DNA from: Dysidea avara
Taxonomy: Eukaryota; Porifera; Demospongiae; Dictyoceratida; Dysideidae
Direction of reading: 5' to 3'
Assembly (NCBI RefSeq): GCF_963678975.1
Contig: NC_089284.1
Coordinates: 867,001-931,000 of the forward strand
Length of the DNA stretch: 64,000 nt
The position numbers and the translations under genes are program-made. The notes beneath the pieces are model-generated. The model ran no database searches, had not been told where the DNA came from, and saw nothing but the letters and a program-made list of their open reading frames with translations. Of this stretch, positions 6,001 through 64,000 are shown one piece after another; the stretch's first letter is position 1; each line of letters starts with the position of its first letter.

Positions 6001-7551
6001 AAACTTTGCTCTGGGGTAGTTTCTTCTCGGTGGTCTGAAATCGGGTATGGCGACTCTTCATATACTTCTTGAACGGTCTCCCCTTTCGGTTTTATAGATG
6101 TTTAACAACTTTAAAACAACACTGAATGCCTCTTAGGTAACATACACTTTGGGGGGGTGTTACCCATACTTATGCGAATGAAAATGAAGGACAGCCTCGA
6201 GGCTTTCTCTATACAATTCGCACAAGAAAACACGATAGACACACTATAAAACTGTTGAGAAGATACTTCTGTGCATAATTTGCGGTTTAAAGTGGTTTGT
6301 TATAGTTACGGTTCAAAGTGGCTTGTTATAGTTACGCTTCTTTAGCAGTGCACAGCAACGTAATTATACCAAATTATAAAATAATTTATGAATTACAAAA
6401 TACGCTAAGTTATAGCATTTACAAATTCTAATTATCTAGCTGAATTAAAAATAACTATAGCATGAATATAAACTAAATTATATACATGGCTGATTAATTT
6501 AGTTAGAATGGGATAGTATTAATTGCATGGGTGCCTGGTTTTTAGAAGTAGCACATCAACTTGTTTTCACACAATTCAAAAAATCGTGTGATGAAATAGT
6601 GAAAATGTTACTAGTAAAACATTGAATGGGCGGTGACATATTGTATGGCCTAGGTGAAGAGGTGTTTGTTATAATATACCCCTTGTATCAGTCTGTTCAG
6701 TCACTGCAATTGCACTATGGGATAGCATGGTGCACTTGTCACTCTGAACCTTTATCTTGAATAGTGCACCTATACCTCTGTGTATCATGAGTTGCACAAA
6801 CTTTTACATGCTGTGAAATGTGATGATTTGGTGGTACCACTTTGAAGTAATACCCACTTTTATTAAATTGTGTCAAACCTTTATAGGAGTTGGAGCTTTG
6901 ATGGTATTTGTCTTCTGAATTGCTTTAAGGCTGGTATACTCTCCAACTAGCATTTGTTGTACCTTAACATAGAGAAAACTTAATAACACTTGAGCTCTAA
7001 TTTATCTGTGAATACAATTCCACTAGGAATTTACAACAATAGACAAATTCCATAATAAGGCTTTATAGCATATAGAAATAACCGTTGCCCCTAGCAACCT
7101 GAATTTCCCATTGTTCTTAGGTGGTAATGTCTAAAGTAACTTCTCCAAATTTTGAAAGGATGGTATGTCATAAGATATGACATTTTGATATTTGTGGTTT
7201 CCCATATGTATCTATGTGAGGGGGCTACAGTTTCCCCTTCTGGGAAATCACAAAAATGAGGTATTTCAACGTATGCAAAAACCAAAAATTCAAAAGTACA
7301 TCTCAATTTTACATAACTTAAGGAATTGACACCTACAAATAATGAAAAATTTAGGTTGCTAGGGGCAACGTTCGATTTTTTCGTTGTTATGAAATTTGTC
7401 TATTAAGCACACAGCTTACTCCATTCTTCACAAATATCTTCTTTCCTTCATCAATCTCATAACCTGCTGCATCCTTTGCAATGCATCCACTAAACTGGCC
7501 CAACAGACTCAACGTTGAGGTCTGCAATGTTTCTTTTAGTAGCTTTTCCAT
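1..7551 (-). CDS. FN3K: Fructosamine-3-kinase (FN3K/FN3KRP family), 3' part outside window
   Basis: FN3K-family kinases phosphorylate ketosamines (fructosamine, ribulosamine) on glycated proteins in the cytosol, which destabilises the adduct. Exons read on the minus strand: 7551-7420 (start [14 protein letters not shown], then [13 protein letters not shown] and IFVKN, the N-lobe of the family), about 1241-1132 ([20 protein letters not shown]), 722-602 (LHLHNQ, then [12 protein letters not shown] and WSSDWV), 553-500 ([12 protein letters not shown]), 437-296 (ending [15 protein letters not shown], containing the catalytic HGD) and 123 to beyond the left edge ([14 protein letters not shown], the metal-binding DPA segment). 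Donor and acceptor sites fit and phase is kept across the last four. The exon carrying the segment after IFVKN was not found in the 6 kb intron, which is full of transposons. The start codon is 84 bp from that of CENPJ on the other strand. FN3K and FN3KRP cannot be separated here. Identification is secure; the 3' end is not visible. Confidence 0.9.
1729..2250. mobile_element. hAT-like MITE, family A copy 1 (522 bp)
   Basis: Starts CAGTGTTGGGAGTAACG and ends with the inverted CCCAACACTG. Flanked by the exact 8-bp duplication tccatact (1721-1728 and 2251-2258). The interior is rich in gtaac/gttac words and has no coding capacity. It lies in an FN3K intron. Confidence 0.93.
3910..4280. mobile_element. 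hAT-like MITE (371 bp), nested
   Basis: Ends TAGGACTGTG and CACAGCACTA, flanked by the exact 8-bp duplication ctcaatac (3902-3909 and 4281-4288). The interior has short inverted cattatcatgattatcatg-type words. Confidence 0.88.
4573..4597. repeat. Short (TA)n tract
   Basis: A run of TA dinucleotides of about 25 bp in the FN3K intron, within the element at 3047-5725. Confidence 0.85.
4714..4773. repeat. Three exact 20-bp tandem units
   Basis: The unit gagttatcctgattataatg is repeated three times head to tail without a mismatch. Confidence 0.95.
5157..5616. mobile_element. Foldback MITE with 7-bp target duplication, copy 1 (460 bp)
   Basis: Inverted repeats of about 80 bp starting CAAGAGTTCATAAT, including the stretch ggagagtatcctactctc. 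Flanked by the 7-bp direct repeat ctaaaat (5150-5156 and 5617-5623). No ORF. Confidence 0.87.
5762..6565. repeat. Dispersed repeat R, copy 1, with a terminal hairpin
   Basis: Opens with a strong hairpin at about 5766-5818 (arms cccacagccagcc / ggctggctgtggg, outer arms aaccaggcg). It continues through sequence shared, in reverse orientation, with 56927-58675 and ends near ggtgcctggtttttagaag. The outer ends are loosely inverted (aaaccaggc...caccca). No ORF. A (CA)n run lies at about 5972-5998. Confidence 0.75.
7042..7400. mobile_element. Mariner-like MITE with TA duplication (359 bp)
   Basis: Inverted ends GACAAATTCCATAATAA / TTGTTATGAAATTTGTC flanked by TA (7040-7041 and 7401-7402), with a second inner inverted pair gttgcccctagcaacc / ggttgctaggggcaac. 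It sits just past FN3K exon 1. Confidence 0.82.
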
Positions 7552-7635
7552 CGTTTGGATTCTAAATCATTCACACAAAATAATCATATCACGTGCCATT
7601 CTGACTTAAATTTGGCGGGGTCCTGGAAACGAGAG
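7552..7635. promoter_or_regulatory. Divergent promoter between FN3K and CENPJ
   Basis: Only 84 bp separate the FN3K ATG (reading left from 7551) and the CENPJ ATG (reading right from 7636). No TATA box is seen. The spacer contains the string tcacgtgcc at about 7588, an E-box-like CACGTG. Both transcripts must start within or upstream of this spacer, so their core promoters probably overlap. Promoter function is inferred from geometry only. Confidence 0.6.
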
Positions 7636-20598
<12,963 letters not shown>

Positions 20599-21262: not shown

Positions 21263-22306
21263 ATGTACAACCAATCCGAGTACCGTTGTTTTAGCGTTTT
21301 AAAACTTGGCCTAGAGCCTAATGAGTATAAAGAAGCTCTTAATAGTAAGTTGATTGCTTTGATGTCTCACGAAATGGAGCAAAGATTTAAGGGAACTTTA
21401 CCTAGAATAGTGAAATTGTGTTTACAAAGTGTGTGCATTAAACCCAAAATCACCCGACCGGAGGAATTGGACAGAAGGAGACGCAGCAATGTTTTATATA
21501 AGAGAGTGTTACTACTGTATGATGAAAGAGGACTCAAACGTAAAAGGCAAAGTGTACAATACAGTAGTGACAAAACACTTGCACAAAGCCAGCAGCAGTC
21601 AGTGTCAGCTCTAGTAGAGCTAGGTGCATCACCTATGAAACTACTAGAACAAACCAGTGGACATCAAGGTACTAGAGTACATTATAAAGTTGTCAATAAA
21701 AAGTATCATGAAGACCAGAGTGTACTTTTAGCACTTCTTCCTGAACTATTACAAATTCATGTAACACCAGAGTCATCTGATTTGAAGTTAACAGAGACAG
21801 AAAAGTTTTGTTGTTTGATTGATAACTACACTGTTATTCTCATGGACTTCTGTAAAAATTTAACATGCCGTAACTGTGATATACCCAGCCCTGATCAACT
21901 CCTTTTACTAGGCATCATCTTAATATTATGTGAAAGGGTGGTTATGGGACGGCAGGTTGCTGATTGGGAAGTTAGTAATGACCTGATGTCAGTCAAGGGA
22001 TGGAGAAGGTGGAAGGATCATGTACAAGTAATGATCTCTTTTACAGCCATGTGGACTATCCTGTTAATGGTTTTCACACTATTAAAACGTAACTGGAAGC
22101 AATTTAGAGAGATTGTTAAAATCCATGCAGATCTGGATACCTTGATTAGTGAGATCTTCCATTATTATGGTTGGTCATGGCCACATCCTAATAATGCTGA
22201 TTCTACTGACTATTATTCTGATCCTAAGTTTGTGACTAGAGTGTTAATGTTTTGGAGTTTGATTTTGCTTATTGTGATTTTAACATCTATAATGACTTTC
22301 CCATGA
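21263..22306 (+). CDS. Unrecognised single-exon protein with C-terminal membrane segments
   Basis: An open frame of 347 codons from ATG 21263 to TGA 22304-22306. I do not recognise the family. The first ~200 residues are hydrophilic, with a basic stretch (EELDRRRRSNVLYKR, RGLKRKRQ). The C-terminal part has hydrophobic segments near residues 211-228 (LLLLGIILILCERVV), 254-274 (MISFTAMWTILLMVFTLL) and 326-347 (LMFWSLILLIVILTSIMTF), the last reaching the C-terminus as in a tail-anchored protein. There are two CxxC-like cysteines (LTCRNCD). It starts 664 bp after the CENPJ stop on the same strand and ends about 480 bp before the BUD23 stop. The lack of introns is unusual next to its neighbours. 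Length and steady codon use support a real gene; function is unknown. Confidence 0.7.
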   Translation: MYNQSEYRCFSVLKLGLEPNEYKEALNSKLIALMSHEMEQRFKGTLPRIVKLCLQSVCIKPKITRPEELDRRRRSNVLYKRVLLLYDERGLKRKRQSVQYSSDKTLAQSQQQSVSALVELGASPMKLLEQTSGHQGTRVHYKVVNKKYHEDQSVLLALLPELLQIHVTPESSDLKLTETEKFCCLIDNYTVILMDFCKNLTCRNCDIPSPDQLLLLGIILILCERVVMGRQVADWEVSNDLMSVKGWRRWKDHVQVMISFTAMWTILLMVFTLLKRNWKQFREIVKIHADLDTLISEIFHYYGWSWPHPNNADSTDYYSDPKFVTRVLMFWSLILLIVILTSIMTFP

Positions 22307-22788: not shown

Positions 22789-25700
22789 TCAAAAATGTGG
22801 TTTTCTTCTCCTTCCAGTGTATTTGGAATCCAAACGGACACCTCTGTGACATGAGGAAATATTATAAGTGCACCATGCATTATGGTCATGCATGCACACC
22901 CTTTTCCCTGTCGTTGTCTTCGTTCCTTCTTAGCTATCACCCACTCTCGACTCTTCAAAGACACCTTACTGCCCTTTTTTCTCACTTCTCTCCTACAAAA
23001 TAAAACTTTGACCAATGTTAGCACAGCTAATATATCTCACCTTGCTTCAGCAAATGGTATTGAATTTGGCTTGCCATTCTCACCAACTCCTGTACCTAAC
23101 CCCTGAATACTACACCAGTACTAGACTAGTTTTTCATTATAGTCACTGTACCTTGGGTAAGCTAGCAGTAACCCCAGCAGTAAATAAACATAAGAATATC
23201 CTGTAAGAAATCGTAGATATACTGCACACTTACACAAACTGACTTTTTGGCTTTAGCACTATTGGGATAGTCAATCACAATCCCACCAGTGAAGCCAGCC
23301 TTCATGGACTGCTGTGTTATCAACTCCATCTATCAAGCACCATAATATACACAGTAACCACACAGAACTATTGTACCTACTTGCGCCGAGTTTTCTGGGT
23401 AAAATTGTAGCACAGCTTTAGCACCTCTTGTCTGTTTAAAAAAAAATAACAGACATGTTTTAACTTTGATAGCTCACTAAGCAAGCATAAAGGCTGGAGA
23501 AGAACTTGAACAATCTTTTTGGTACATGGTGTTCTTTTTTGTCAGCATTACACAACCACTGCAGTGCTGATATGCTAACAAATTGCATTACAATGGACAT
23601 CACCGAATAGGAGTGTGTACCTTATGGCACCATCAAAACTGCCTGGCCTAAATCCAAGACCTTGTCCTATGTCACACAAAAACAGATCACCTTCAACCTC
23701 TCCTTCCTGTGCCACAGCTGTTGATATTAGATAACATGATAATGAACACTTTTACTAACCAATCACAATCACATAATATCATTGACCTTTCACCACAAGC
23801 ATTGATCACAAACTACTTACCTAACATGTGTTCACTGATATCAACACCAACCCAGTAATGACCCAAGTCTGTCAGCTGCTCACCGCTCAACCCAGAACCA
23901 CATCTACTCCATATTACTGATTTATACAGTGGTCAATACCACACTTCCTACCCAATATCCAAGAGGTAATGTGGTTCATCAGGTAGGGCCAGTAATTCTG
24001 TTGCCCTTTCTGCCATCTGCATTTGTATCTCAATCATCCGAGTACTATCAAACACAACCTTTCTAAAACCAGGTGTTATTCTTGTATGTAAATTATATTT
24101 AAGTACATAGTTCTCAAAAAACGATCCAGATATGTGCATGTAAACTTTTTACAACCATTACAGTTTGGTTCTTGCTTAAAAATATGTACAGTCACACCTG
24201 TAATTCTTACAAAAATCCAGTGATCTAACACACACAAAAAATATTTAGTACTTAAACAATTGGTATTCTGGTTAAAAAATAAAATTGAATTCAGTGATGA
24301 GATAAACGGAGAATTTTTCTTTCACGGATCACAAGGGAAAGCAGAAATCCCATACAACTAAAACCTGCCACAGTGATGAAGGATCCAAACCAGCCAGCAC
24401 TCTTAGAGAAAGATGACGAGAGCACAGCACCTGTAACAGCTGACACTGCATGAGCTGTAAACAGTAAACCATAGTTGGCAGCCATGTGTCGTGGACCAAA
24501 CAGCTGACAGGTAGCAGTTGGGAATAATGAATAGTTTCCACCTAGACACAGGTAAATCATACACAACCATATGAAGTACATGGATCGACTGTCAACTAAA
24601 CTCGAAAAATAAAAGGTCGACAAGAATGCTGTTGCTAAAGCTGTCATGATGACCATTGCGAACTTGAATGAAACTCTGTCTGAGACCAAACCCCACAAAA
24701 TTCTACCAGCTGCATTGAACCCTGAAGAAGCAGAAATAACAGCAGTCAAAAATCGGTCACTGCCAATGAAGGTTTCACCAAATATTTTGCTGACAGAAGT
24801 AACATATATAACAGCTTCAGTATTGAGTAGAAACATAAACCAAAGCAAATAAAAATTGACATCTTTTAGTAATTCTATTGGTCGTAGGCTCACTGGCTCC
24901 ATTTGATCTGGTACAGGTTTGAGTAGATGTTGATTATCAGGGTGCACACTCTCTGAATGAAGGGTCTCCTCTCGTGCTTTTTTCTGTTCATACGAATCAT
25001 TGACAAGCAAATATTGTGGAGACTTAGTACCTAGAGGAAAGTGTGTCCCATTAGATGGGAGCAAAGCTTGATTACTCTGACCAGCAACACTGTCCAGAAA
25101 TGAAGCATCGCTTTTCTGGCTTTTGTATGAGGCATCAATTGGAATTGAGCTATAGCCACTGCATGATGATGACACTGCTATATCCACAGCTGTGGGGCTA
25201 TCTGGTGAAATCATTGCATCCATCTCTGGGTCAACAGTGCCATCACAACATATCACAGGGTTTCTGCCATTTGGTGATTTCCGGGGCTCAAATATCATCA
25301 TACACCCCACTAACTGAATGACAAAGTATATTCCACCTAGTAGCAGGAAGCTATATGGAACTTTCCTAAGCAAAGACTCATTATCAAAATACTTCTCATT
25401 GCTATGGTGTGGACAATTTTTAGATGGTGACAAATTATTAGGATTGATATATGCTGATTGAACAAAACTGAATATGAGAGCACCACTGCCATAGCCAGCC
25501 ACCACGAGGCCATTAACAAGTCCTTTATGATTAGGGAACCAACGGATGACACAGTACAATGGACCAACATATGCTAGACCTGCTCCAACCCCATACATGA
25601 TACCATAAGTGACCAAGAATACCCAATATGACACTTTGATTGTGATGTAACTTAGCATTATCCCACACACCAGTGTCACACAGCCAGAGGCAGTTGCTAA

Positions 25701-26315
25701 TCTCACAGAAAGCTTGTGTGCCAGTAAGCCTCCAAAGTACATACTCAAACTTTGTCCAATTGCAGCTGAAGAAAACACCCATGGAGCATCAACACCTCTG
25801 AGACGCACAGGATGGGAATGATTCCTGATATACGAGATGATGTAGGGTGCCATATTGGAATAGGTGTATATTGTACCCAGTGTTAGGTGTACTAGGACCC
25901 CACCAATCAGTGATGAGATGGCCATAGCCCTTTTCTTTGTCCTCCAAGAGATTGCCATTCCGTGAAGTCACAACTAATCGACACCACTTTATTAACACAG
26001 TCTGTAATGAACAAAATGGAATAGTCACTCCAGTTGATAAGAACATTACCTATAACACTACCGTGCCGCGGACAAATCAACGAAAATATTAATTATACAC
26101 TGTGTATCGAAATAACGAGTGCAGTAGCAGAACAATAAAAATAATAGCCAGTACAGCAAATCACTAAACCACATCTGAATACTTACTTCTGAGTGTACTT
26201 TCTTGCTTCTTTCTCGTCATAGAACTGCAAAAGGACGTACAAATAAAATGCACAACAACAACTTGTAACCCACCAACTCTGGCGGGCCACGATGCTCTGG
26301 CCTTCCCGAAGCCAT
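22789..26315 (-). CDS. BUD23: 18S rRNA (guanine-N7) methyltransferase BUD23/WBSCR22
   Basis: BUD23, with TRMT112, methylates a guanosine of 18S rRNA and is needed for small-subunit export. Twelve exons can be traced: 26315-26274 ([14 protein letters not shown]), 26224-26187 ([12 protein letters not shown]), 24062-23952 ([16 protein letters not shown]...YLLDIG), 23903-23821 ([10 protein letters not shown], the SAM-binding glycine motif, then HYWVGVDIS), 23717-23621 ([18 protein letters not shown]), 23574-23478 ([11 protein letters not shown]), 23431-23381 ([15 protein letters not shown]), 23329-23244 ([18 protein letters not shown]), 23200-23152 (IFLCLFTAG), 23102-23041, 22992-22900 ([17 protein letters not shown]) and 22843-22789 ([13 protein letters not shown], stop). 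GT-AG sites and phases agree throughout. The basic C-terminal tail is typical of the family. Intron 2 (26186-24063) contains an intronless MFS transporter on the same strand. The start codon is 125 bp from that of divergent DNAJC30. Confidence 0.96.
24291..25958 (-). CDS. MFS transporter, monocarboxylate/oxalate-formate antiporter-like, nested in BUD23 intron 2
   Basis: A single open frame of 555 codons. The N-terminal segment [20 protein letters not shown] resembles the first helix of OxlT-like and L-lactate-transporter-like MFS proteins. About twelve hydrophobic helices are seen in two groups of six, with a long hydrophilic loop (about residues 225-355) between them, as in MCT-type carriers. 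The motif-A-like region between helices 2 and 3 reads [11 protein letters not shown], and that between helices 8 and 9 [17 protein letters not shown]. It is therefore probably a plasma-membrane small-anion or monocarboxylate carrier; the substrate is unknown. It lies on the same strand between BUD23 exons 2 and 3 and has no visible introns, which suggests either a retrocopy or an ancient nested gene. Its own promoter would have to lie within about 230 bp of intron upstream. No premature stop or frameshift is present. Confidence 0.88.
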   Translation of the reverse strand: MAISWRTKKRAMAISSLIGGVLVHLTLGTIYTYSNMAPYIISYIRNHSHPVRLRGVDAPWVFSSAAIGQSLSMYFGGLLAHKLSVRLATASGCVTLVCGIMLSYITIKVSYWVFLVTYGIMYGVGAGLAYVGPLYCVIRWFPNHKGLVNGLVVAGYGSGALIFSFVQSAYINPNNLSPSKNCPHHSNEKYFDNESLLRKVPYSFLLLGGIYFVIQLVGCMMIFEPRKSPNGRNPVICCDGTVDPEMDAMISPDSPTAVDIAVSSSCSGYSSIPIDASYKSQKSDASFLDSVAGQSNQALLPSNGTHFPLGTKSPQYLLVNDSYEQKKAREETLHSESVHPDNQHLLKPVPDQMEPVSLRPIELLKDVNFYLLWFMFLLNTEAVIYVTSVSKIFGETFIGSDRFLTAVISASSGFNAAGRILWGLVSDRVSFKFAMVIMTALATAFLSTFYFSSLVDSRSMYFIWLCMIYLCLGGNYSLFPTATCQLFGPRHMAANYGLLFTAHAVSAVTGAVLSSSFSKSAGWFGSFITVAGFSCMGFLLSLVIRERKILRLSHH

Positions 26316-26440
26316 GGTCACGTGCGGAAATAAAAAGAGGTGGTCACTTGTTAGAGAAAGAGAAAGTAAGGTTGCAGCGAGGGTTGCATTTGGTTTGTAC
26401 AATGGTATCTCGATGTGGTTCGCCACATGTGTTGTGAATA
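26316..26440. promoter_or_regulatory. Divergent promoter between BUD23 and DNAJC30
   Basis: 125 bp separate the BUD23 ATG (26315, minus) and the DNAJC30 ATG (26441, plus). No TATA box is seen. A cacgtg E-box-like string lies at about 26319. The same two genes are head-to-head in human, so the shared promoter arrangement appears conserved. Function is inferred from position. Confidence 0.65.
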
Positions 26441-27097
26441 ATGCAGTTCGTTATGTGCCTGAAGGGACCATGGAGCACCACTTACATGTCCACGTGCTAC
26501 CCCACTGGTCGGAGTACCCTAGTTGGAAGGCTATGCTATTCTACACTTTATCATAATGCTGATAAAGACTTTTACTCCATTTTGGAGGTGCCTCGTAAGG
26601 CCACACAAGCTCAGATCAAATCAGCTTACTACAAACTCTCAATGAAATATCACCCAGATAAAAATCAAGGGAACAGAGAGGCTCATAGAAAGTTTGTCGA
26701 AATAGGTGAGGCGTATGCAGCACTAGGGCAGATTGAGTCAAGAAGGAAGTACGATATAGAGTTGGGGTTTACACATCCACAAGTCAGGTCTTCATCAGTG
26801 CAGAGACAAAAATTTACATATACTCCACCGCCAAATGCATCTCATGGGCCACAGTTCAATTTTGATGAGTTCTACAAGGCACATTATGGCCACACTAAAC
26901 ACTGGAAGAGACAACAGCAATGGGAGGCTCAACAAAAGACTGAGGTGAAGCAAACACCAAGAGTAACTGGTGTTCCTCCACACTTGTGGTTTGCTCTGGC
27001 ATTCACCACAGTGTCAGTAATAGTTGTTGTATTGGGTGGCATTGCTACAGTAGGTATTGTAACAGTAACAATAATCAGAAAGATATTTTCACAATAA
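26441..27097 (+). CDS. DNAJC30: J-domain protein DNAJC30
   Basis: A single-exon ORF of 218 codons. The N-terminal ~40 residues are rich in Ser, Thr and Arg with almost no acidic residues, like a mitochondrial presequence. A J domain follows at about residues 42-105, with the sequence DFYSILEVPRKATQAQIKSA and the HPD motif at residues 71-73 that stimulates Hsp70 ATPase. A single hydrophobic segment near residues 180-208 precedes a short basic tail. Length, intronless structure, J domain near the N-terminus and one C-terminal membrane helix match vertebrate DNAJC30, an inner-membrane mitochondrial factor linked to ATP synthase and complex I repair. Its position between BUD23 (head-to-head) and VPS37 (tail-to-tail) is the same as in human. 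The AATAAA at 27093-27098 overlaps the stop codon, and the VPS37 stop is only 67 bp away. Confidence 0.93.
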   Translation: MQFVMCLKGPWSTTYMSTCYPTGRSTLVGRLCYSTLYHNADKDFYSILEVPRKATQAQIKSAYYKLSMKYHPDKNQGNREAHRKFVEIGEAYAALGQIESRRKYDIELGFTHPQVRSSSVQRQKFTYTPPPNASHGPQFNFDEFYKAHYGHTKHWKRQQQWEAQQKTEVKQTPRVTGVPPHLWFALAFTTVSVIVVVLGGIATVGIVTVTIIRKIFSQ

Positions 27098-27164
27098 AAA
27101 AACTGACACTGCACTTTATTATTTTATATTATAAAATGTCTGTATAGTTTCTAATTTATACCTA

Positions 27165-30100
27165 CTATCGATATCCTCCCCCATAATAAGGTTGGTAGGG
27201 TGGCCTTGCAGGTTGTTGGGGATAACCAGGTGGTCTGTAACCAGCTGCAGGTTGCGGCCTGTATCCAGGTTGATAACTAGGTTGTGGTGGTGGCCTATAT
27301 CCAGGCTGTGGTGGATAACCAGGCTGTTGTGGGTACCCAGGAGGTCGGTAGCCAGTTTGCTGAGGATATGACACAGGTGGCTGATAAGCAGACCTTGTTG
27401 ACGGTGGCTGATAAGCAGGCCTTGTTGACGGTGGCTGATAAGCAGGCCTTGTTGACGGTGGCTGATAAGCAGGCCTTGTTGACGGTGGCTGATAAACAGG
27501 TCTTGCTGATGGAGGGTATGATCCTGGAGGGGGCTGATAACTTGGTCTAGGTGGTGCTGGTTGTTGATATTGTGGTGGATGTGTGTATGGTGCTCCTTGT
27601 GTTGTTGCTGCTACTGGTGACTGTGGCTGGTAAGGTGGTTGTTGAACTGGAGCTGGTTGGGGATTATTGTCTCCAGGGATGGTATTTGCTCTGGGAGAAG
27701 CTGTTGGCATGTTCCCACGGGTGGTGCTTCGATAGGGTGCAGGAATCTTGGGTGGTGCAGAACGTCTTGGAGGAATTTTCGGAGCAGTCTGGTGCAACAA
27801 TTCATCCATCTTTTCAACTTTAACCTTCCTCAACCAATAGCTAGCTCTAGACTGAAGATACTGATCCAAAAATTGCTCTTCATTCATTTTAGATGATAGA
27901 AAAGCTTCTCCAATCTCCTAAAAACAGTACAGTGGATGTCGTCATTAATACTGTACAATTATAGTGTTATACCTCAGTTTGATTTTCAAGATCACTAACT
28001 GACTTTTGTAGATCTGTGAAGATTTTTTCGTTATCCATCTTTTTAGCCAATTCAGCTGCAGTAATATTAGTGTATGCAGGTCCACACAAACTAGCAGTAC
28101 TTACTCAGTTCGTTGTAATACTGCTTGTATGTGTCCAACAAATTCTTCACCTCAGACTGTGCAGTTAATAGTTCATTCTGCAGGTTCTCAAGCTTTGGCT
28201 TGTGCTCCAAGTTATCTGTAGCTAACTTCTTGTTCTCAGTAGAAGTAGACTGCTTCTTCTCCAGCAGTTCTTTAAGCTAAATGGAACACAGCATGTTGGT
28301 CTCATCTGTGGTTGTTTACTATGTTTTGTTAAGACATGCTGATTTCTACATAATTTAGAAACCCCAAGGATGATGTGGACAAGGGATACCTGCAAATTAA
28401 TTGCCAATGTTGCAGGCCAAGGTACTGTTGTGGGTAATCAAGACCACATTGTTTGAGGAGCTCTAAATTGTATAGAAGAAACCTTGTCAGCACACTCTAA
28501 TGTTGGGAAGTGAAACACATAAAGAGCAAGGGGAAGTAGCAAACCACAAAGTCTTCTAGCTGCTAGGGTGCAGCTAGCAGGCTATTTAGTTTTAGGGTTT
28601 GCCTATGCTCGTTTGATAAATTCAGAAAATTTATGCATAGTACTTTATAGATCACAGAGAGACTATTCATTTACATTTTTTCAATACCACCAAAAAAAAA
28701 CAGAACCCTCAAATACACACATACATTGTTGATAACTGTTCATACAATGTCACGATATGTACAGTATAATAGATAGCAACGCACATGAAGCATAAACTAG
28801 TTGTAACCTTTATGATCATTCAAATTTTGAGAAGGCCTAGAGCTTATGTGGAAGGCAACGTGACCTCTTCAATATCTACTTCTCACTGTCAAGGATCATG
28901 GGAAGCACTGTTTACTAAGAGATCATACAACTGCAAAACTGTTTCACTGTGATTCATTTGGACTACACAGCACTAGCATTGGTATGGGTGTAACTAATCA
29001 CTGGACTGGAACACTGGACTGACATATTTTTGGTTTTACACATTCTGAGGTTGGTTTTATTGAGTCTTGATAGCTAAGGACCTTCAGAATAGTTGCAGTC
29101 TACTACTAAAATGATAAATGTGAGGAGTGGAGTAAGCAAAAACTGACTTCTACCACTACTTGTTATGCTCTACAGCATTTATATACTTACTTGAAATATA
29201 CTTACTTGAACTAAATATCTCAGACCCCTGGGACTCCACCTATCCTTCCTAGGACAATCTATTGTAGCTAAATTGTTCCTACATGTAATATACAAACTCA
29301 TTGCACAACTGTAGAGTTTTTCTGCTATCATGATTAGTCCTTATATGTGCTGGTTAGCATACTATAACATGTGACCAAATTTATTAGCATTGTACAAGCT
29401 TGCTACTATCTCCAAGACAATATCGTTGGTTAACCATAACTAGCATATTCCCTACAGCATACTGATAAGGAGTATAGGTATAGCTATGTACTGTAGAAGA
29501 GCATAGTTAATAGATGTGAAATCACTAGAAGTAAGTTTTTGCTTACTCCACTCCTCATACTCATCATTTTAGTTGTGGACTGCAACTATTCTGAAGGCCC
29601 TTGACTAGCAAGACTCAATAAAACCAACTTCAGAATGTGTAAAAACCAAAAATATGTCAGTCCAGTAGTCCAGTGATTAGTTGCACCCCATTGGTACCTA
29701 CCCTATGTGCAGAGTCAGGTTACACACTTTTTAGTTTCTGCCATCACTATCATACAGGATTATGTAAATTTCTACATGACATTTAACAACAAAAAGAATG
29801 ATTTTGTATGTATTGTATTTAGTGGATTTGTACACATTGCATTGAATGAAAGCCAACACCATTTATACAAGTTACTATATAGCAAGGATTCCAGTAAAAT
29901 TGAACCAACAAAAGGTGCACACTTTATGGCACTCCAGTTAATTTTTTGATGTACTCTATGCTAATACAAGCTGTAAAGCAATGTCATCAAGTACATGACA
30001 ACAAGTACTTTCAATATTGCAAGGCATTGGCCTGGTAATAACAAGGTTCCTGGTTCACTGCCCGTGTGGGAATTGCTACTTGAGCAAGAAATTTTACTCC

Positions 30101-30583
30101 CATTGGTCTCAGCCTAGCCAGCTATAAAACTGGAAAATGTTGCATATCATATTGTCCGGGAAAACTAAAGAGCAGCCAAAGCTATCACCCCTGCCACACA
30201 CAACACACCAAGATACCCAGCATCAAGTTTGATTTAAAGCCATGAAGTTTGCTGCCAAGAAGTATACATTTCAACATGGTTGTAACATAGATTATATAAG
30301 TAGGGAATCTATATATGGTTGTAAGGGGTATATAAAAAAAATTTACCCGTACCCAGCCTGCTACAATACATACCCGTGGCACATTTAAGTTCATTATCAA
30401 CTCGTGTAGAGACGCCACATCATCCAACACGGCACGTAACTCTGGCATGCTCATTTCGTCTAAAGTACTGCGTAATCCCGTGACCTGTAGGTCTGATGAT
30501 GAAGTGGAATTTTGCGATAAGGAGGGTCCTGATACTGCCCTCTTTCTAGGAACAGGAGCTGGTCTTGGCATTGACATCGACAT
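27165..30583 (-). CDS. VPS37: ESCRT-I subunit VPS37 (proline-rich, B/C/D-like)
   Basis: VPS37 is the coiled-coil subunit of ESCRT-I, which sorts ubiquitinated cargo into multivesicular bodies. Exons on the minus strand: 30583-30374 (LDEMSMPELRAVLDDV), 28276-28105 (LKELLEKK, KPKLENLQNELLTAQSEVK), 28055-27973 (AELAKKMDNEKIF) and 27917-27165 (EEQFLDQYLQSRASYWLRKV then a long tail). The middle exons form the Mod(r) domain; the segment FLDQYLQSRASYWLRKVKVE is its hallmark C-terminal helix. The last ~190 residues are extremely rich in Pro, Gln and Tyr, with a tandem YQPPSTRPA unit coded by a 27-bp minisatellite (27380-27500). Such tails occur in vertebrate VPS37B/C/D. Introns contain a 704-bp foldback transposon. 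Convergent with DNAJC30; divergent from CFAP251 with 310 bp between ATGs. The exact vertebrate paralogue cannot be assigned. Confidence 0.93.
27375..27500. repeat. 27-bp coding minisatellite in VPS37
   Basis: The unit ggctgataagcaggcc...ttgacggt is repeated four to five times, coding the YQPPSTRPA repeat on the minus strand. The middle copies are identical. Confidence 0.93.
28986..29689. mobile_element. Long-foldback element in a VPS37 intron (704 bp)
   Basis: Inverted arms of roughly 180 bp (for example gagtggagtaagcaaaaact / agtttttgcttactccactc) flanked by attggtat (28978-28985) and attggtac (29690-29697), seven of eight matching. No coding capacity. Confidence 0.82.
29975..30130 (+). repeat. 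Possible tRNA-derived SINE remnant
   Basis: Contains ggcattggcctggtaa followed by aaggttcctggttcactgcc, which resembles the anticodon stem and B box of a tRNA-derived SINE, then a non-tRNA body. No second copy in this window. Confidence 0.4.
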
Positions 30584-30893: not shown

Positions 30894-40749
<9,856 letters not shown>

Positions 40750-40829: not shown

Positions 40830-41743
40830 TCATAATCTCTTAATTCTTTTCTTGTTTTCTCTGCAGCAAATGCTGAATAAATTGTCTTCAATAGTACTGT
40901 CTCTAATATTTTCTTTGTCAGGGAATAAACATCGTCTGACATCATCATGTGAGGGATCACTAGTGTAACTAGTGGTGTCATCTCTCAGTCTGAGTCTATC
41001 AAAATTTAATAGTTCTATTGTAGAAGGTGATTGGGTAGATAGGATGGATGGTAAGCTGTAATACAGTGGTAAACTGGAGTTGTGTAGGGGAGTTAGTACA
41101 CTTCTACCAGTAGAATTAGTTAAGTGTGGTGTAACTGTAGCAGCCATGGGGACATAATTTTCCTGAAAAAGATTAAAGTAATTTACACACAATGATTCCA
41201 AACTTACTTTACTGGTGATGTATTTTGCTTTCATTTTTCGCAAGTGAGTTTTACATTTCTTCATGAAGTATGGATCTTGGGTAATCACGTGGTACCAGCA
41301 AGAGTTGACCTGCTGACATCTGGCCAAGCAGAAATAAGCATAAACAACAAGAGAGTATCAGCCAAACGGCTACGAAATAAAGTACAATAACTACCGATAA
41401 CTACTTACAAGTAACTATTAAACGCGAGATTTTTAAAGAATGATCATTGCAAGTATAACAAAGATTAGTACCTGCAAAGTTCACTAGCATTGAGGTAGGA
41501 TAAGATCATAGCTCGTAATTCTGGTGGCAATCTTGATAAAATATCTAGGTATTTCTTCTCATCAAACTGGGTAGAGGGTTTATCGAATTTTCGCCGACTG
41601 GGGGTCAACCAACATAAAGGAACGCTGGGAGAAAGCTTTGTTTGTCTGTCAGGTATTCTTGATCTTCCAAAAAAGAATGCTCCTTGATGTATAACGGGAG
41701 AGTTCCACCCTCCCCACTGGGTCAACACAGCTGCCGCGCTCAT
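40830..41743 (-). CDS. F-box domain protein
   Basis: Three exons with good GT-AG borders: 41743-41472, 41319-41208 and 41162-40830, together about 239 codons. The first exon ends and the second begins within an F-box: DILSRLPPELRAMILSYLNA, then SELCR-CQQVNSCWYHVI, with the usual spacing of Leu-Pro, Leu and Trp residues. F-box proteins bring substrates to SCF ubiquitin ligases through Skp1. Upstream of the F-box is a Pro/Arg-rich stretch (PSRRKFDKPSTQFDE). The C-terminal half is Ser/Thr-rich without a recognised substrate-binding repeat and ends with a basic KKRIKRL. It starts 148 bp after the stop of the SGSM gene on the same strand, so its promoter probably lies in that gene's 3' UTR. The specific family member is not recognised. 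Confidence 0.8.
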
Positions 41744-41891
41744 CTTCTCCCGCGAAGCCTACACGCATGCGCATTGCAATCCCACAATTAAAAATATTTT
41801 AGCCAATTAACGCTCATCTGTGACTTTGTTTACGATTGACTAGATAGTCTTGGACTAAAAGTACGTTAAATAATTACAGATAATACACATA

Positions 41892-48246
<6,355 letters not shown>

Positions 48247-48434: not shown

Positions 48435-51041
48435 TTAAACATCCTCTTCAGTTGAGCTCTCATTGTTATTTAGCTGGCTGAATAGCACTTGATCCTTAGC
48501 ATATTTGTGACAACACGTGGAACAAATGATAGGTACTGAAGACTTATTACGTCCATTACAACAAACTTGGAGTTTTATTAACAGAATTACTACAGATATT
48601 AGCACCACCATACCCACACTGACAAATATGATAATTTGTGTGGTGGATGAACTTGGCTTAGATGTGGATAAACTTGTCATAGTGAAGTTGACTTGTACAG
48701 CATCCTCATCAGGGATGGTCACATTTCTCAACACTGGTTCATATCCAGGAGCTGTCACTGATAGTTGGTAACTGCCAGGTACAAGTAGTCTCCAATATTC
48801 ACCTAATCCTGTACCACTGATACTATGCTCTCTACCAGCTACTATTATTTTGGCATTAGGTATAGCCACACCTTGATTATCCAACACAAATCCTTTTACT
48901 CCTTTGTGTACCTCGTGGATATATGCTAGTAGGGCATCATAATTTTCCTCCCATATGTGAGGTAGGTTAGATGCTCTGGGAAACTTCTGGCAGCCTTGTT
49001 CAATTGTGATCTCAAAACAGTTTGTCTCAGCATAATTGTAGTCTTGCATTCCACCAACCACTATGTACCATGCAGCTCCATTAGTGATACCATCTTCAAA
49101 ATACTCTTTGTCATTAGGACAAGGTGTCCCCAAGTGCATGCGAGGGTGAGCCATTGAATAAGCCAGTGACAACTGACGAAATATATCATCATCTGGACTC
49201 CTGGTATAAACAGGTGTATTACTATTACTGTTGGAACTGTCATAAGGATAGTTGGCCACCAGGGCTCCATTGTGTAGGTTAGCTGACAAAACAAACGGAT
49301 ATTCTTTGACCCATTTCATCACTGCTAATGTTTCTGGTTGTCTTGAGTGTTGATTACGGTGAAGTCTATCAGGAAAATCTCTATTTAAATCTGCTTTATT
49401 AGCATTATTTCTTCCTTTAACACCAGAATAATCTCCCTCATGTGCCACAGCATACCCATCAGGATTCATGGTGGGCATTATATGGATTCTAGTAGTGTCT
49501 ATAAGGTTTGTGATACTTGCCACTCTGGCATAGTTCTCACACAAATACTCTATCAACAGTAATAGTGTTTCTCTGCCAGTCACTTCATTTCCATGCATGT
49601 TAGCTATATATTTGAATTCTGGTTCACCAGGTTCATGTGTACCAGGGTGATCTGATATCTCCATAACCCAAAGATCAATACCTTTCACAGATTTACCAAT
49701 AGAATATAACCTTGTAATACTGGGATACTTAGTAGCATAGGTATGTAAGAAATTATCCAGTTGCTCATTGGAGTGGTGTGAAAAACGAGAAGGCTCAATG
49801 GGCTCGATGTGATTTTGTATGGTCAAACTAAAGTTCTGTATAGTAACAGCTGCATTGGTTACAATAACTCCAGTCACAGTCTTGGGTTTATATCCATCTG
49901 CACTGACAGTAATTGTATAGTTTCCAGCAACAAGGAGTCGCCAGTAATCTCCAAAAGATGCAGACTTTACATCATGGTCAATGCCATCAATGTGGATTGT
50001 AGCATTCTCAATAGGAGCTCCATCAACATCAGCGACAAATCCTGCCACTCCCCTATGTGTCTGCTCAATGAAAGAGATCAGAGCTTCACGATTATTCTCC
50101 CATTCTGTGGACAATTGGTTAGGACGAGGGTACTTACAACAAGATAGTTCAAAGGTAACTTCAAAGCAGTTGCTATGTAAGTAATTGTAGTCTTGCATTC
50201 CACCAGGTACATCATACCAATGAGCTCCATTTGTAATACCATCTTGAAAATCATCACCAGGACAGTTCCGCCCCAGGTGCATCGTGTGATGGGAATGAGA
50301 ATACACTAAAGCCATTTCCCTGAGTATTGCATCATCTGGTGATCTACTATAATAACCAGATATTTGATGTTGGGCGGAATCATCAAACGGATAACTGGCC
50401 ACCACAGAGCCACCATGAAGATTACCTGACAACACAAAAGGATTACTTGTTATCCACTTGATCAATGCTTCGGTTTCTGGTTCACGGGGTCTGTGTCGAG
50501 GTGTCACATCAAACTGATCTGGGAAATCTCTATTCAGGTCAACATCATGAGCATTGTTACGACCTCCTCCATCATCGCAGCTTCCCACTATTGAACGTTC
50601 AAATCCATCTGGATTCATGGAAGGCATTATATAGATATCTGTAGAGTTTATCAAATTACTGACACGAACATCCTCACCATAATGATCACACAAATGTTGT
50701 ATTAGATAAATTACCACCTCTCTGCCTATTGCTTCATCACCGTGCATGTTGGCGACATACTTGAACATTGGTTCCCCAGGTTCTTGTATTGTAGGGTTGT
50801 CTGATATCCTCATCACCCAAAGCTCTCGATTCTCAACTGACCTACCCACTGAAAACAGTTGAGTGATGTGAGGATAAGCATGAGCATAATCATGTAGCAG
50901 TTGTGTCAGACTATCATAGTCATGGTAGCGATCAGATTCAGTTTGCTTCAAAGTTGCTTCAGTCAAAAATAACAATACAGAGTAGAGCAAGCAACATAAA
51001 ATATTTATCTTTGATATTTGCATAATTTCCTCCCTACACAA
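48435..51041 (-). CDS. CPD: Carboxypeptidase D-like, two M14 domains, membrane-anchored, intronless
   Basis: An open frame of 868 codons without introns. Translation more likely starts at the second ATG (51023), giving MQISKINILCCLLYSVLLFL as signal peptide. Domain 1 (about residues 40-330) has HGDE with zinc ligands H100 and E103, NPDG, LNRDFPD, third ligand H209 in NLHGG, and catalytic E298 in FELSCCKYP. A transthyretin-like domain follows (about 332-405). Domain 2 (about 420-710) has H483, E486, H590 and catalytic E681 (ITIEQGCQKFP), then a second transthyretin-like domain and a membrane helix at about 803-826 with a cysteine-containing cytoplasmic tail. Both domains look active. The family removes C-terminal Arg/Lys from peptides processed in the secretory pathway. 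Vertebrate CPD has three M14 domains, the third inactive; here there are two. Start lies in a gene-poor flank; the stop is 188 bp from the SGSM start. A near-identical inverted copy starts at 62833. Confidence 0.93.
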   Translation of the reverse strand: MCREEIMQISKINILCCLLYSVLLFLTEATLKQTESDRYHDYDSLTQLLHDYAHAYPHITQLFSVGRSVENRELWVMRISDNPTIQEPGEPMFKYVANMHGDEAIGREVVIYLIQHLCDHYGEDVRVSNLINSTDIYIMPSMNPDGFERSIVGSCDDGGGRNNAHDVDLNRDFPDQFDVTPRHRPREPETEALIKWITSNPFVLSGNLHGGSVVASYPFDDSAQHQISGYYSRSPDDAILREMALVYSHSHHTMHLGRNCPGDDFQDGITNGAHWYDVPGGMQDYNYLHSNCFEVTFELSCCKYPRPNQLSTEWENNREALISFIEQTHRGVAGFVADVDGAPIENATIHIDGIDHDVKSASFGDYWRLLVAGNYTITVSADGYKPKTVTGVIVTNAAVTIQNFSLTIQNHIEPIEPSRFSHHSNEQLDNFLHTYATKYPSITRLYSIGKSVKGIDLWVMEISDHPGTHEPGEPEFKYIANMHGNEVTGRETLLLLIEYLCENYARVASITNLIDTTRIHIMPTMNPDGYAVAHEGDYSGVKGRNNANKADLNRDFPDRLHRNQHSRQPETLAVMKWVKEYPFVLSANLHNGALVANYPYDSSNSNSNTPVYTRSPDDDIFRQLSLAYSMAHPRMHLGTPCPNDKEYFEDGITNGAAWYIVVGGMQDYNYAETNCFEITIEQGCQKFPRASNLPHIWEENYDALLAYIHEVHKGVKGFVLDNQGVAIPNAKIIVAGREHSISGTGLGEYWRLLVPGSYQLSVTAPGYEPVLRNVTIPDEDAVQVNFTMTSLSTSKPSSSTTQIIIFVSVGMVVLISVVILLIKLQVCCNGRNKSSVPIICSTCCHKYAKDQVLFSQLNNNESSTEEDV

Positions 51042-62111: not shown

Positions 62112-62832
62112 TGGTACGGTATATACATACTTTTTAATATTATTTCCACTTATTCTATCAATACAACACTTTACATTATGTCTCTACTCGGCTCTATCAT
62201 AGAAAATATACGACTTTATCTCGTACCATAAGATGATCGTACGGCATCCAACAGTAAAACATTGGCGCGTGATATTATTATTAAAACTATTATTAATACG
62301 CGCTATATGCTTCTTTGTGCCATGGATAGTGTTTGTGCGAAAGTCGAAGGCAAGCAATAAAGAATAGAAAGTGATGGTTACTTGCTGGTAAGATATGTCT
62401 TATATTACGCTTGCCTGTTACACAACTGTAGCTCACCTCAGAGGCTTTATATTATCGAGATTTTTATTTAAAAACAGGTTCAAACACAGGCTACAAAACG
62501 AGCAGCGAGTTACGACAGTATTTATATATAATTGGTAATTAATATATGTCCATGAGTTTGCCTCTCTGCCCACTGTTTGAGCATTTATTATTGATTTATA
62601 TTATCTTTTTTATTTCCCATCAACAAAAAAAAGGCCGAAAAAAAATGTCCATGACTCCATGTGTTGAGAAACTTCATAATTGTATAGATACAGTCTGCCT
62701 GTACTCGCCCTTTAAATATCTATATACGACTACACTTTCCTATAGTATGCTATGGTATATATATATCTAAGGACCCTTGCTTATATTATGATATCTATCT
62801 GTTAATGTATATTGTCCCATAGAACAGGAACA

Positions 62833-64000
62833 ATGAAGTCATTTAAGGAAATTCTTTTTGTCATATTTTGTGTGATGCTTGTGTTGACTGAAGCAATTTT
62901 GAAGCCAATTGAATCTGATCGCTACCATGACTATGATAGTCTTACACAACTGCTACATGATTATGCTCATGCTTACCCTCACATCACTCAACTGTTTTCA
63001 GTGGGTAGGTCAGTTGAGAATCGAGAGCTTTGGGTGATGAGGATATCAGACAACCCTACAATACAAGAACCTGGGGAACCAATGTTCAAGTATGTCGCCA
63101 ACATGCACGGTGATGAAGCAATAGGGAGAGAGGTGGTAATTTATCTAATACAACATTTGTGTGATCATTATGGTGAGGATGTTCGTGTCAGTAATTTGAT
63201 AAACTCTACAGATATCTATATAATGCCTTCCATGAATCCAGATGGATTTGAACGTTCAATAGTGGGAAGCTGCGATGATGGAGGAGGTCGTAACAATGCT
63301 CATGATGTTGACCTGAATAGAGATTTCCCAGATCAGTTTGATGTGACACCTCGACACAGACCCCGTGAACCAGAAACCGAAGCATTGATCAAGTGGATAA
63401 CAAGTAATCCTTTTGTGTTGTCAGGTAATCTTCATGGTGGCTCTGTGGTGGCCAGTTATCCGTTTGATGATTCCGCCCAACATCAAATATCTGGTTATTA
63501 TAGTAGATCACCAGATGATGCAATACTCAGGGAAATGGCTTTAGTGTATTCTCATTCCCATCACACGATGCACCTGGGGCGGAACTGTCCTGGTGATGAT
63601 TTTCAAGATGGTATTACAAATGGAGCTCATTGGTATGATGTACCTGGTGGAATGCAAGACTACAATTACTTACATAGCAACTGCTTTGAAGTTACCTTTG
63701 AACTATCTTGTTGTAAGTACCCTCGTCCTAACCAATTGTCCACAGAATGGGAGAATAATCGTGAAGCTCTGATCTCTTTCATTGAGCAGACACATAGGGG
63801 AGTGGCAGGATTTGTCGCTGATGTTGATGGAGCTCCTATTGAGAATGCTACAATCCACATTGATGGCATTGACCATGATGTAAAGTCTGCATCTTTTGGA
63901 GATTACTGGCGACTCCTTGTTGCTGGAAACTATACAATTACTGTCAGTGCAGATGGATATAAACCCAAGACTGTGACTGGAGTTATTGTAACCAATGCAG
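62833..64000 (+). CDS. CPD: Second carboxypeptidase D-like gene, 5' part only
   Basis: The ATG at 62833 opens a frame that runs to the right edge (about 389 codons). The signal peptide (MKSFKEILFVIFCVMLVL) differs from that of the minus-strand copy. From the bases ttgactgaagca (about 62882) onward the two genes are almost identical; I found only scattered substitutions such as ctt/ctg and tac/tat. Domain 1 is complete with its HGDE, NPDG, LNRDFPD, NLHGG and FELSCCKYP motifs, followed by most of the first transthyretin-like domain. Whether the second M14 domain and membrane anchor are present cannot be seen. It is intronless so far and faces away from its partner across about 11.8 kb. Confidence 0.92.
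   Translation, partial: MKSFKEILFVIFCVMLVLTEAILKPIESDRYHDYDSLTQLLHDYAHAYPHITQLFSVGRSVENRELWVMRISDNPTIQEPGEPMFKYVANMHGDEAIGREVVIYLIQHLCDHYGEDVRVSNLINSTDIYIMPSMNPDGFERSIVGSCDDGGGRNNAHDVDLNRDFPDQFDVTPRHRPREPETEALIKWITSNPFVLSGNLHGGSVVASYPFDDSAQHQISGYYSRSPDDAILREMALVYSHSHHTMHLGRNCPGDDFQDGITNGAHWYDVPGGMQDYNYLHSNCFEVTFELSCCKYPRPNQLSTEWENNREALISFIEQTHRGVAGFVADVDGAPIENATIHIDGIDHDVKSASFGDYWRLLVAGNYTITVSADGYKPKTVTGVIVTNA

What the first reader, a model, noticed from the sequence alone, without database searches (positions are those of the whole stretch)
22789..30583. BUD23-DNAJC30-VPS37 block matches human 7q11.23 in order and orientation
The three genes are identified independently by their own motifs: BUD23 by 12 exons, DNAJC30 by J domain plus membrane helix, VPS37 by the Mod(r) domain. 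BUD23 and DNAJC30 are head-to-head; DNAJC30 and VPS37 are tail-to-tail. In human, VPS37D(+), DNAJC30(-), BUD23(+) lie side by side in the Williams-Beuren interval, which is the same arrangement reversed. If the host is a sponge, this microsynteny dates from the base of animals. I do not know of a published report of it.
Basis: partly seen in the sequence, partly recalled or inferred. Interest (0 to 1): 0.88.

Follow-up and report, generated by a model that had tools for sequence, protein, structure and literature searches.

The report
Williams-syndrome gene trio in a sponge
Three neighbouring genes that lie side by side in the human Williams-syndrome region also sit side by side, in the same order, in the sponge Dysidea avara, which suggests that the trio dates back to early animals.

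Summary
The window lies on a contig of the demosponge Dysidea avara. BUD23 (minus strand, 12 exons), single-exon DNAJC30 (plus) and VPS37 (minus, 4 exons) are real; the BUD23 and VPS37 models equal NCBI's D. avara proteins letter for letter. BUD23 and DNAJC30 are head-to-head (125 bp between start codons); DNAJC30 and VPS37 are tail-to-tail (67 bp between stops). Papers list VPS37D, DNAJC30, BUD23 in this order in human; the human strands are recalled.

Two additions. The next recognised gene beyond VPS37 is CFAP251/WDR66, which in human is at 12q24.31 with VPS37B, so the sponge stretch touches two human paralogous regions. An intronless transporter gene is nested in BUD23 intron 2.

Shared descent fits best but is not proven: no gene order from an intermediate phylum could be read. 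One annelid has BUD23 and DNAJC30 on different contigs. Two other 7q11.23 families (BCL7, BAZ1-type) are on other sponge chromosomes. The VPS37 class (B/C/D, not A) rests on architecture, and no separate VPS37A was identified. Synteny around DNAJC30 in vertebrates is published, and ancient sponge-human gene pairs are a known class; this would be a new three-gene case.

The parts
22789..26315 (-). BUD23 (WBSCR22) coding region, 12 exons: 26315-26274, 26224-26187, 24044-23952, 23903-23821, 23717-23621, 23574-23478, 23431-23381, 23329-23244, 23200-23152, 23102-23041, 22992-22900, 22843-22789; 281 aa
   Evidence: splice model; identical to P0121 [Dysidea avara]; 6g4w 354.8 bits; one match of the C-terminal domain in the genome
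24291..25958 (-). Intronless 555-aa MFS transporter, nested on the same strand in BUD23 intron 2 (24045-26186)
   Evidence: MFS_1, 113.8 bits; nearest solved relatives oxalate:formate antiporter 70.5 bits and L-lactate transporter 64.1 bits
26316..26440 (.). 125-bp interval between the BUD23 and DNAJC30 start codons, presumed shared bidirectional promoter; contains CACGTG and GCGGAA
   Evidence: sequence; CpG observed/expected 1.04 in the interval and 0.92 in 26000-26300, window median 0.33; but 20% of 250-bp windows reach the value of 26251-26500 (0.67); motif meaning inferred
26441..27097 (+). DNAJC30, single exon, 218 aa (P0001 starts 15 codons later, 203 aa); J domain residues 43-105, C-terminal hydrophobic segment
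   Evidence: P0004 keeps the upstream start MQFVM; 2yua 'Williams-Beuren syndrome chromosome region 18 protein' 62.1 bits, narrowly ahead of DNAJB9 59.5 and DNAJA3 59.4, with 'Chaperone protein DnaJ 2' (6psi) at 62.9
27098..27164 (.). 67-bp interval between the DNAJC30 and VPS37 stop codons; AATAAA on the minus strand just past the DNAJC30 stop suggests overlapping 3' ends
   Evidence: sequence printed; overlap inferred
27165..30583 (-). VPS37 (B/C/D-type architecture) coding region, 4 exons: 30583-30374, 28276-28105, 28055-27973, 27917-27165; 405 aa, Mod(r) domain then proline-rich tail
   Evidence: identical to P0241 'VPS37B-like [Dysidea avara]'; Mod_r 86.6 bits; VPS37B chain 6vme 26.1 bits
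34815..40746 (+). CFAP251/WDR66, multi-exon (approximate limits, exact splice sites not modelled)
   Evidence: exon pieces; CFAP251 chain 8j07 625 bits, nearest chain not of this family 41.5 bits

Best explanation
This is a block of three adjacent genes inherited, in order and orientation, from an ancestor older than the split between sponges and the lineage leading to vertebrates. BUD23 (18S rRNA N7-guanine methyltransferase) and DNAJC30 (mitochondrial J protein) most likely share one compact bidirectional promoter, so a break between them would damage both genes. VPS37 (ESCRT-I subunit) ends 67 bp from DNAJC30 in the sponge and has probably stayed by compactness and lack of breakage rather than by shared control. 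After the vertebrate genome duplications, VPS37D stayed with DNAJC30 and BUD23 at 7q11.23, while VPS37B and CFAP251 ended up at 12q24.31. Shown: the sponge arrangement, and the human order as listed in papers. Inferred: common descent, the shared promoter, and the split into two human regions. The protein functions are established knowledge (recalled).
For: Gene models verified against NCBI proteins. Human order in three papers' lists. Same alternating orientation; the human strands are recalled. Start-to-start gap 125 bp, with raised CpG (o/e 1.04 in the gap, 0.92 at 26000-26300, median 0.33) that falls to 0.08-0.36 along DNAJC30. The next recognised gene beyond VPS37 in the sponge is CFAP251, which in human is at 12q24.31 in a run CFAP251, BCL7A, MLXIP ... 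CLIP1 ... VPS37B (PMC11867633; WDR66, BCL7A, MLXIP also in horse, PMC6402180), paralogous by name to BCL7B, MLXIPL, VPS37D, CLIP2 at 7q11.23. RAN and SNRPD3 lie within 60 kb of the window; by recall they are at 12q24.33 and 22q11.23. [quoted passage not shown] which species show which gene was not visible). Chance expectation of an oriented trio at most about 0.05 genome-wide under the assumptions.
Against: No intermediate phylum could be checked. In Paralvinella, DNAJC30 (contig of 485,430 bp) and BUD23 (1,494,205 bp) are on different contigs, so the pair is not held everywhere. Of two other human 7q11.23 families tested, 0 of 2 lie on the sponge contig C13: BCL7 is on C14 and the BAZ1-type WAC domain on C10 and C8. 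A transporter gene has entered BUD23 intron 2, so the unit tolerates insertion. The CpG signal is not rare: 20% of 250-bp windows match the one around the gap. VPS37 orthology to B/C/D rests on architecture and NCBI's name; Mod(r) scores do not separate A from B, and no separate VPS37A was identified.
Confidence: 0.65

Rival explanations
1. Only the head-to-head BUD23-DNAJC30 pair is ancestral. VPS37 came to lie next to DNAJC30 independently in sponge and vertebrate lineages, helped by all three being on one ancestral chromosome.
For: A shared promoter gives a reason to keep the first pair but not the tail-to-tail one. The catfish Figure 4 legend names WBSCR22, DNAJC30, TBL2 and BCL7B, with no VPS37D in the passage seen.
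Against: Independent arrival in the same place and orientation is unlikely; expected oriented trios are at most about 0.05 even with full mixing inside linkage groups. The sponge gap is only 67 bp.
Confidence: 0.17
2. The whole match is coincidence or convergence.
For: The Paralvinella pair is on different contigs. BCL7 and BAZ1-type genes are not on C13. The trio was picked out after the fact from a large genome.
Against: Order and orientations agree, BUD23's C-terminal domain is found once, CFAP251 gives a second, independent link to a VPS37 locus in human, and the chance expectation is low.
Confidence: 0.1
3. The block is ancestral but kept only passively: compact spacing and slow rearrangement, with no shared regulation. 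(This competes with the mechanism, not with common descent.)
For: The three proteins act in ribosome maturation, mitochondria and ESCRT-I (recalled), with no obvious common pathway. A transporter gene inserted in BUD23 intron 2 was tolerated. The CpG rise is not rare in this window.
Against: The 125-bp start-to-start gap fits one shared promoter. Head-to-head genes that may share a bidirectional promoter are called a common feature in Amphimedon (PMC5429095, passage seen).
Confidence: 0.35

Closest known systems
Human 7q11.23 Williams-Beuren interval: VPS37D, DNAJC30, BUD23
   Same: Same three genes in the same order (reversed); same alternating orientation as far as the human strands are recalled; BUD23 and DNAJC30 head-to-head
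   Different: In the sponge the genes are tightly packed, the flanking genes differ (CENPJ-like and CFAP251 instead of STX1A and MLXIPL), and a transporter is nested in BUD23 intron 2
Vertebrate DNAJC30 synteny block (human, zebrafish, catfish; PMC4277396, passages seen)
   Same: Legend names WBSCR22/BUD23 in the DNAJC30 block
   Different: Vertebrates only; the legend passage seen does not name VPS37D
Ancient metazoan microsyntenic pairs (80 reported, 60 confirmed in Amphimedon; PMC5429095 citing Irimia et al. 2012, passages seen)
   Same: Neighbouring genes kept together from sponge to human
   Different: Those are described as pairs sharing cis-regulatory elements, or a developmental regulator with a bystander; this is three housekeeping-type genes with a likely bidirectional promoter. 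Whether BUD23-DNAJC30 is already among the 80 was not testable here
Human 12q24.31: CFAP251, BCL7A, MLXIP ... VPS37B
   Same: CFAP251 and a VPS37 gene on one stretch
   Different: In human 22 listed names lie between CFAP251 and VPS37B (PMC11867633); in the sponge about 4 kb separates VPS37 from the first recognised CFAP251 exon piece

Membership tests
Conserved trio VPS37-DNAJC30-BUD23 (7q11.23 type) | All three genes adjacent in the order BUD23-DNAJC30-VPS37 | tested here: met
   an intronless gene is nested inside BUD23 but none lies between the three
Conserved trio VPS37-DNAJC30-BUD23 (7q11.23 type) | Same relative strands as human | tested here: inconclusive
   Sponge strands -,+,- shown; human strands +,-,+ recalled, not printed in any passage seen
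Conserved trio VPS37-DNAJC30-BUD23 (7q11.23 type) | Present in intermediate phyla | tested here: inconclusive
   Only one species could be judged by contig: Paralvinella, with DNAJC30 and BUD23 on different contigs; no other phylum testable
BUD23 methyltransferase | Full-length similarity including the WBS_methylT C-terminus | tested here: met
   (residues 4-281 against chain residues 6-281); PF12589 in P0121
DNAJC30 | J domain followed by a C-terminal membrane segment; nearest named relatives are DNAJC30 | tested here: met
   (J domain 43-105); hydrophobic stretch near residues 180-212 read by eye; 26 of 37 named rows among the 120 listed say DNAJC30, none another named subfamily
VPS37B/C/D class | Mod(r) domain with no UEV domain | tested here: met
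   only Mod_r found in a VPS37 model given whole, with a tail mistyped nine residues too long; 70 aa encoded before intron 1
VPS37B/C/D class | Proline-rich C-terminal tail | tested here: met
   209-aa tail with 65 prolines and three PPxY matches
VPS37B/C/D class | Groups with B/C/D rather than A in sequence comparison | tested here: inconclusive
VPS37B/C/D class | A separate VPS37A gene exists in the same genome | tested here: inconclusive
   Mod(r) search weak even for the window gene (best 25.4 bits, cut-off 30.1); C12 candidate looks like a generic coiled coil; C3 UEV locus shows no Mod(r) in three forward frames; C7 UEV locus not followed

The most novel reading that the evidence does not exclude
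BUD23-DNAJC30-VPS37-CFAP251 is a surviving fragment of the ancestral animal chromosome. After genome duplication in vertebrates it was split between 7q11.23 (the Williams-syndrome region) and 12q24.31, and the BUD23/DNAJC30 promoter has acted as an inseparable two-way switch since before sponges diverged.
Probability: 0.4. Interest if true: 0.66.

Novelty: new member of a known kind. Interest (0 to 1): 0.5.

Why it matters
If true, part of a human microdeletion interval is an animal-wide neighbourhood: BUD23 and DNAJC30 would have shared a control region since before sponges split off. That makes a testable prediction (co-regulation of ribosome maturation and a mitochondrial J protein) and gives a clean marker for reconstructing ancestral linkage, since CFAP251 and VPS37 join the human 7q11.23 and 12q24.31 paralogous regions. 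Ancient sponge-human gene pairs are already known as a class, so this adds a good case rather than a new principle.

Tried and rejected
Sigma-70 promoter and terminator scans were not run (wrong kind of organism). Rfam search of the window at gathering thresholds: 0 matches. Viral-contig search for DNAJC30 relatives to get more gene order: one J-domain locus (L014) in an IMG/VR contig, not pursued. Matching contig lengths, by eye, between the DNAJC30 and BUD23 homologue lists (120 rows each, best of 171 and 6132): no shared length above 2 kb; one length of 1,688 bp occurs in both, from different sources, and was taken as coincidence. Two named species are in both lists: Paralvinella (different contigs) and Callorhinchus (no contig given for its DNAJC30). 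VPS37 homologue search: 1 protein, the window's own. Own-genome Mod(r) search: 5 matches, all below the curated cut-off, two of them exons of the window gene; the C8 and C2 matches read as simple-repeat and retroelement-like frames, and the C12 match hits several unrelated coiled-coil families about equally well. UEV search: C7 and C3; the C3 10-kb stretch shows UEV and a kinase but no Mod(r) in its three forward frames; C7 was not followed. So a separate VPS37A was not identified, nor excluded. Other 7q11.23 families on C13: 0 of 2 tested; syntaxin, PSMD9 and KNTC1 searches did not complete. Considered and rejected: that the block is an assembly artefact (it sits 0.89 Mb inside an 18.98-Mb contig, and NCBI's BUD23 and VPS37 models agree).


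Full report
What is there. The window is part of contig C13 (18,977,392 bp) of a 550.8-Mb genome in 108 contigs. Homologue searches return proteins named Dysidea avara, identical to my models, on a contig of exactly that length, so the host is this demosponge. A chromosome-level genome of it, 575 Mb in 162 scaffolds, has been published (PMC12909245, abstract seen); it may be a different assembly.

BUD23 was modelled by hand from splice sites: 12 exons, minus strand, 26315 to 22789, 281 aa. It equals NCBI's isoform X2 letter for letter. PDB chain 6g4w (human BUD23; species of PDB chains are recalled here and below) matches at 354.8 bits over residues 4-281, while METTL27 scores 24.5 bits. An exon-level search finds the BUD23-specific C-terminal domain once in the genome.

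DNAJC30 is a single open frame, 26441-27097, plus strand, with a J domain at residues 43-105 and a hydrophobic segment near the C-terminus. Of 171 relatives 120 are listed, and 37 of these have names: 26 say DNAJC30, one is cut off, ten are generic, none names another J-protein subfamily. In the PDB the Williams-Beuren region 18 protein (2yua, 62.1 bits) is only narrowly ahead of DNAJB9 and DNAJA3 and just behind a bacterial DnaJ (62.9), as expected for a comparison limited to the J domain.

VPS37 has 4 exons, minus strand, 30583 to 27165, 405 aa, equal to NCBI's 'VPS37B-like'. It has a Mod(r) domain (86.6 bits), no UEV domain and a 209-residue tail with 65 prolines. A separate VPS37A was neither identified nor excluded: the genome-wide Mod(r) search is weak even for the window gene, its C12 match looks like a generic coiled coil, and the UEV locus on C3 shows no Mod(r) nearby.

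Arrangement. BUD23 and DNAJC30 start codons are 125 bp apart, head-to-head; DNAJC30 and VPS37 stop codons are 67 bp apart, tail-to-tail. CpG observed/expected is 1.04 in the 125-bp gap and 0.92 at 26000-26300, against a window median of 0.33, and falls to 0.08-0.36 along DNAJC30, as expected of one promoter region between the two genes. About 20% of 250-bp windows in this sequence have a CpG ratio as high as 26251-26500 (0.67), so this is suggestive only.

Comparison with human. The order MLXIPL, VPS37D, DNAJC30, BUD23/WBSCR22, STX1A is given in gene lists of PMC10502022, PMC3608171 and PMC10530736 (passages seen). The human strands are recalled. [quoted passage not shown] its Figure 4 legend names WBSCR22, TBL2 and BCL7B (passages seen). 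No paper in the library held DNAJC30, VPS37D and 'synteny' (0 papers). The papers found (9; 17; 1; 12 listed of 13) show no report of the trio outside vertebrates by title and abstract start; one search listed 30 of 688. Supplementary lists could not be opened, and a paper on sponge bidirectional promoters (10.1038/srep22496) could not be fetched.

Extension. The next recognised gene beyond VPS37, about 4 kb away, is CFAP251 (WDR66): joined exon pieces match the CFAP251 chain 8j07 at 625 bits and the best chain outside the family at 41.5. Human CFAP251 is at 12q24.31 (PMC8787216) in the listed order CFAP251, BCL7A, MLXIP... CLIP1... HIP1R, VPS37B, with 22 names between CFAP251 and VPS37B (PMC11867633; the paper misprints some symbols; horse lists WDR66, BCL7A, MLXIP in this order, PMC6402180). 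Set beside BCL7B, MLXIPL, VPS37D and CLIP2 at 7q11.23, this marks the two human regions as paralogous, and the sponge stretch has members of both. RAN and SNRPD3 lie at 857.5 kb and 809.4 kb of C13; their human places, 12q24.33 and 22q11.23, are recalled.

Against. In Paralvinella palmiformis, DNAJC30 (LSH36_247g01062, contig 485,430 bp) and BUD23 (LSH36_11g09002, contig 1,494,205 bp) are on different contigs. BCL7 is on C14 and the WAC domain of BAZ1-type proteins on C10 and C8, so 0 of 2 other 7q11.23 families tested lie on C13; syntaxin, PSMD9 and KNTC1 searches did not complete. No genome of an intermediate phylum was available.

Chance. With 8,000 shared genes (assumed), a fully shuffled order gives 6e-5 expected oriented trios genome-wide, and shuffling within 24-29 linkage groups 0.04-0.05. 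Coincidence is therefore possible but unlikely, even after allowing for the trio having been picked out afterwards.

Verdict. Common descent is the best explanation; a shared promoter is the likeliest reason for the head-to-head pair, and passive retention for VPS37. Ancient sponge-human gene neighbours are a known class (80 pairs reported, 60 confirmed in Amphimedon, PMC5429095, passages seen), so this is a new, unusually complete case of a known kind, pending a check in other phyla.

Noticed in passing
window 24291-25958 (-): Intronless 555-aa MFS gene inside BUD23 intron 2, same strand; nearest solved relatives are oxalate:formate and L-lactate transporters (70.5 and 64.1 bits), far above MCT8 (23 bits). 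A retrocopy or horizontal origin was not tested.
   Followed up: partly
window ~7500-20300 (+): CENPJ/CPAP-like gene (name by recall): Tcp10_C repeats near 19.9 kb (83.8 bits); a retroelement with RT/RNaseH and integrase frames and a gag-like frame lies on the minus strand at about 12.9-16.7 kb, apparently inside it.
   Followed up: partly
window 21263-22306 (+): 347-aa open frame with hydrophobic segments and no Pfam match, between the CENPJ-like gene and BUD23.
   Followed up: no
window 40833-41758 (-): F-box-like piece (21.2 bits, below the cut-off) and a C-terminus ending in ..KRIKRL; resembles EMI1/FBXO5 by recall.
   Followed up: no
window ~45767-47928 (-): Rab-binding-domain piece (PH_RBD, below the cut-off) and a RUN-like piece; SGSM-like by recall.
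   Followed up: no
window 48435-51041 (-) and 62806-64000 (+): Carboxypeptidase-D-like gene (two M14 stretches) and, about 12 kb away in opposite orientation, a second frame running off the window whose visible part is near-identical by eye; looks like a recent inverted duplication.
   Followed up: no
window 29027-29152 and 29526-29651: Inverted repeat in VPS37 intron 1, 126-nt arms 90% complementary, 373 nt apart; may be a small non-autonomous DNA transposon.
   Followed up: partly
window ~17250-17640 and ~33080-33615: Two arrays translating as AGRQ/CLPA repeats (12-bp-type minisatellite), same unit at two places.
   Followed up: no
L014 388-555: J-domain protein (48% identity over 56 residues to a sponge DNAJC30) in an IMG/VR contig.
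   Followed up: no
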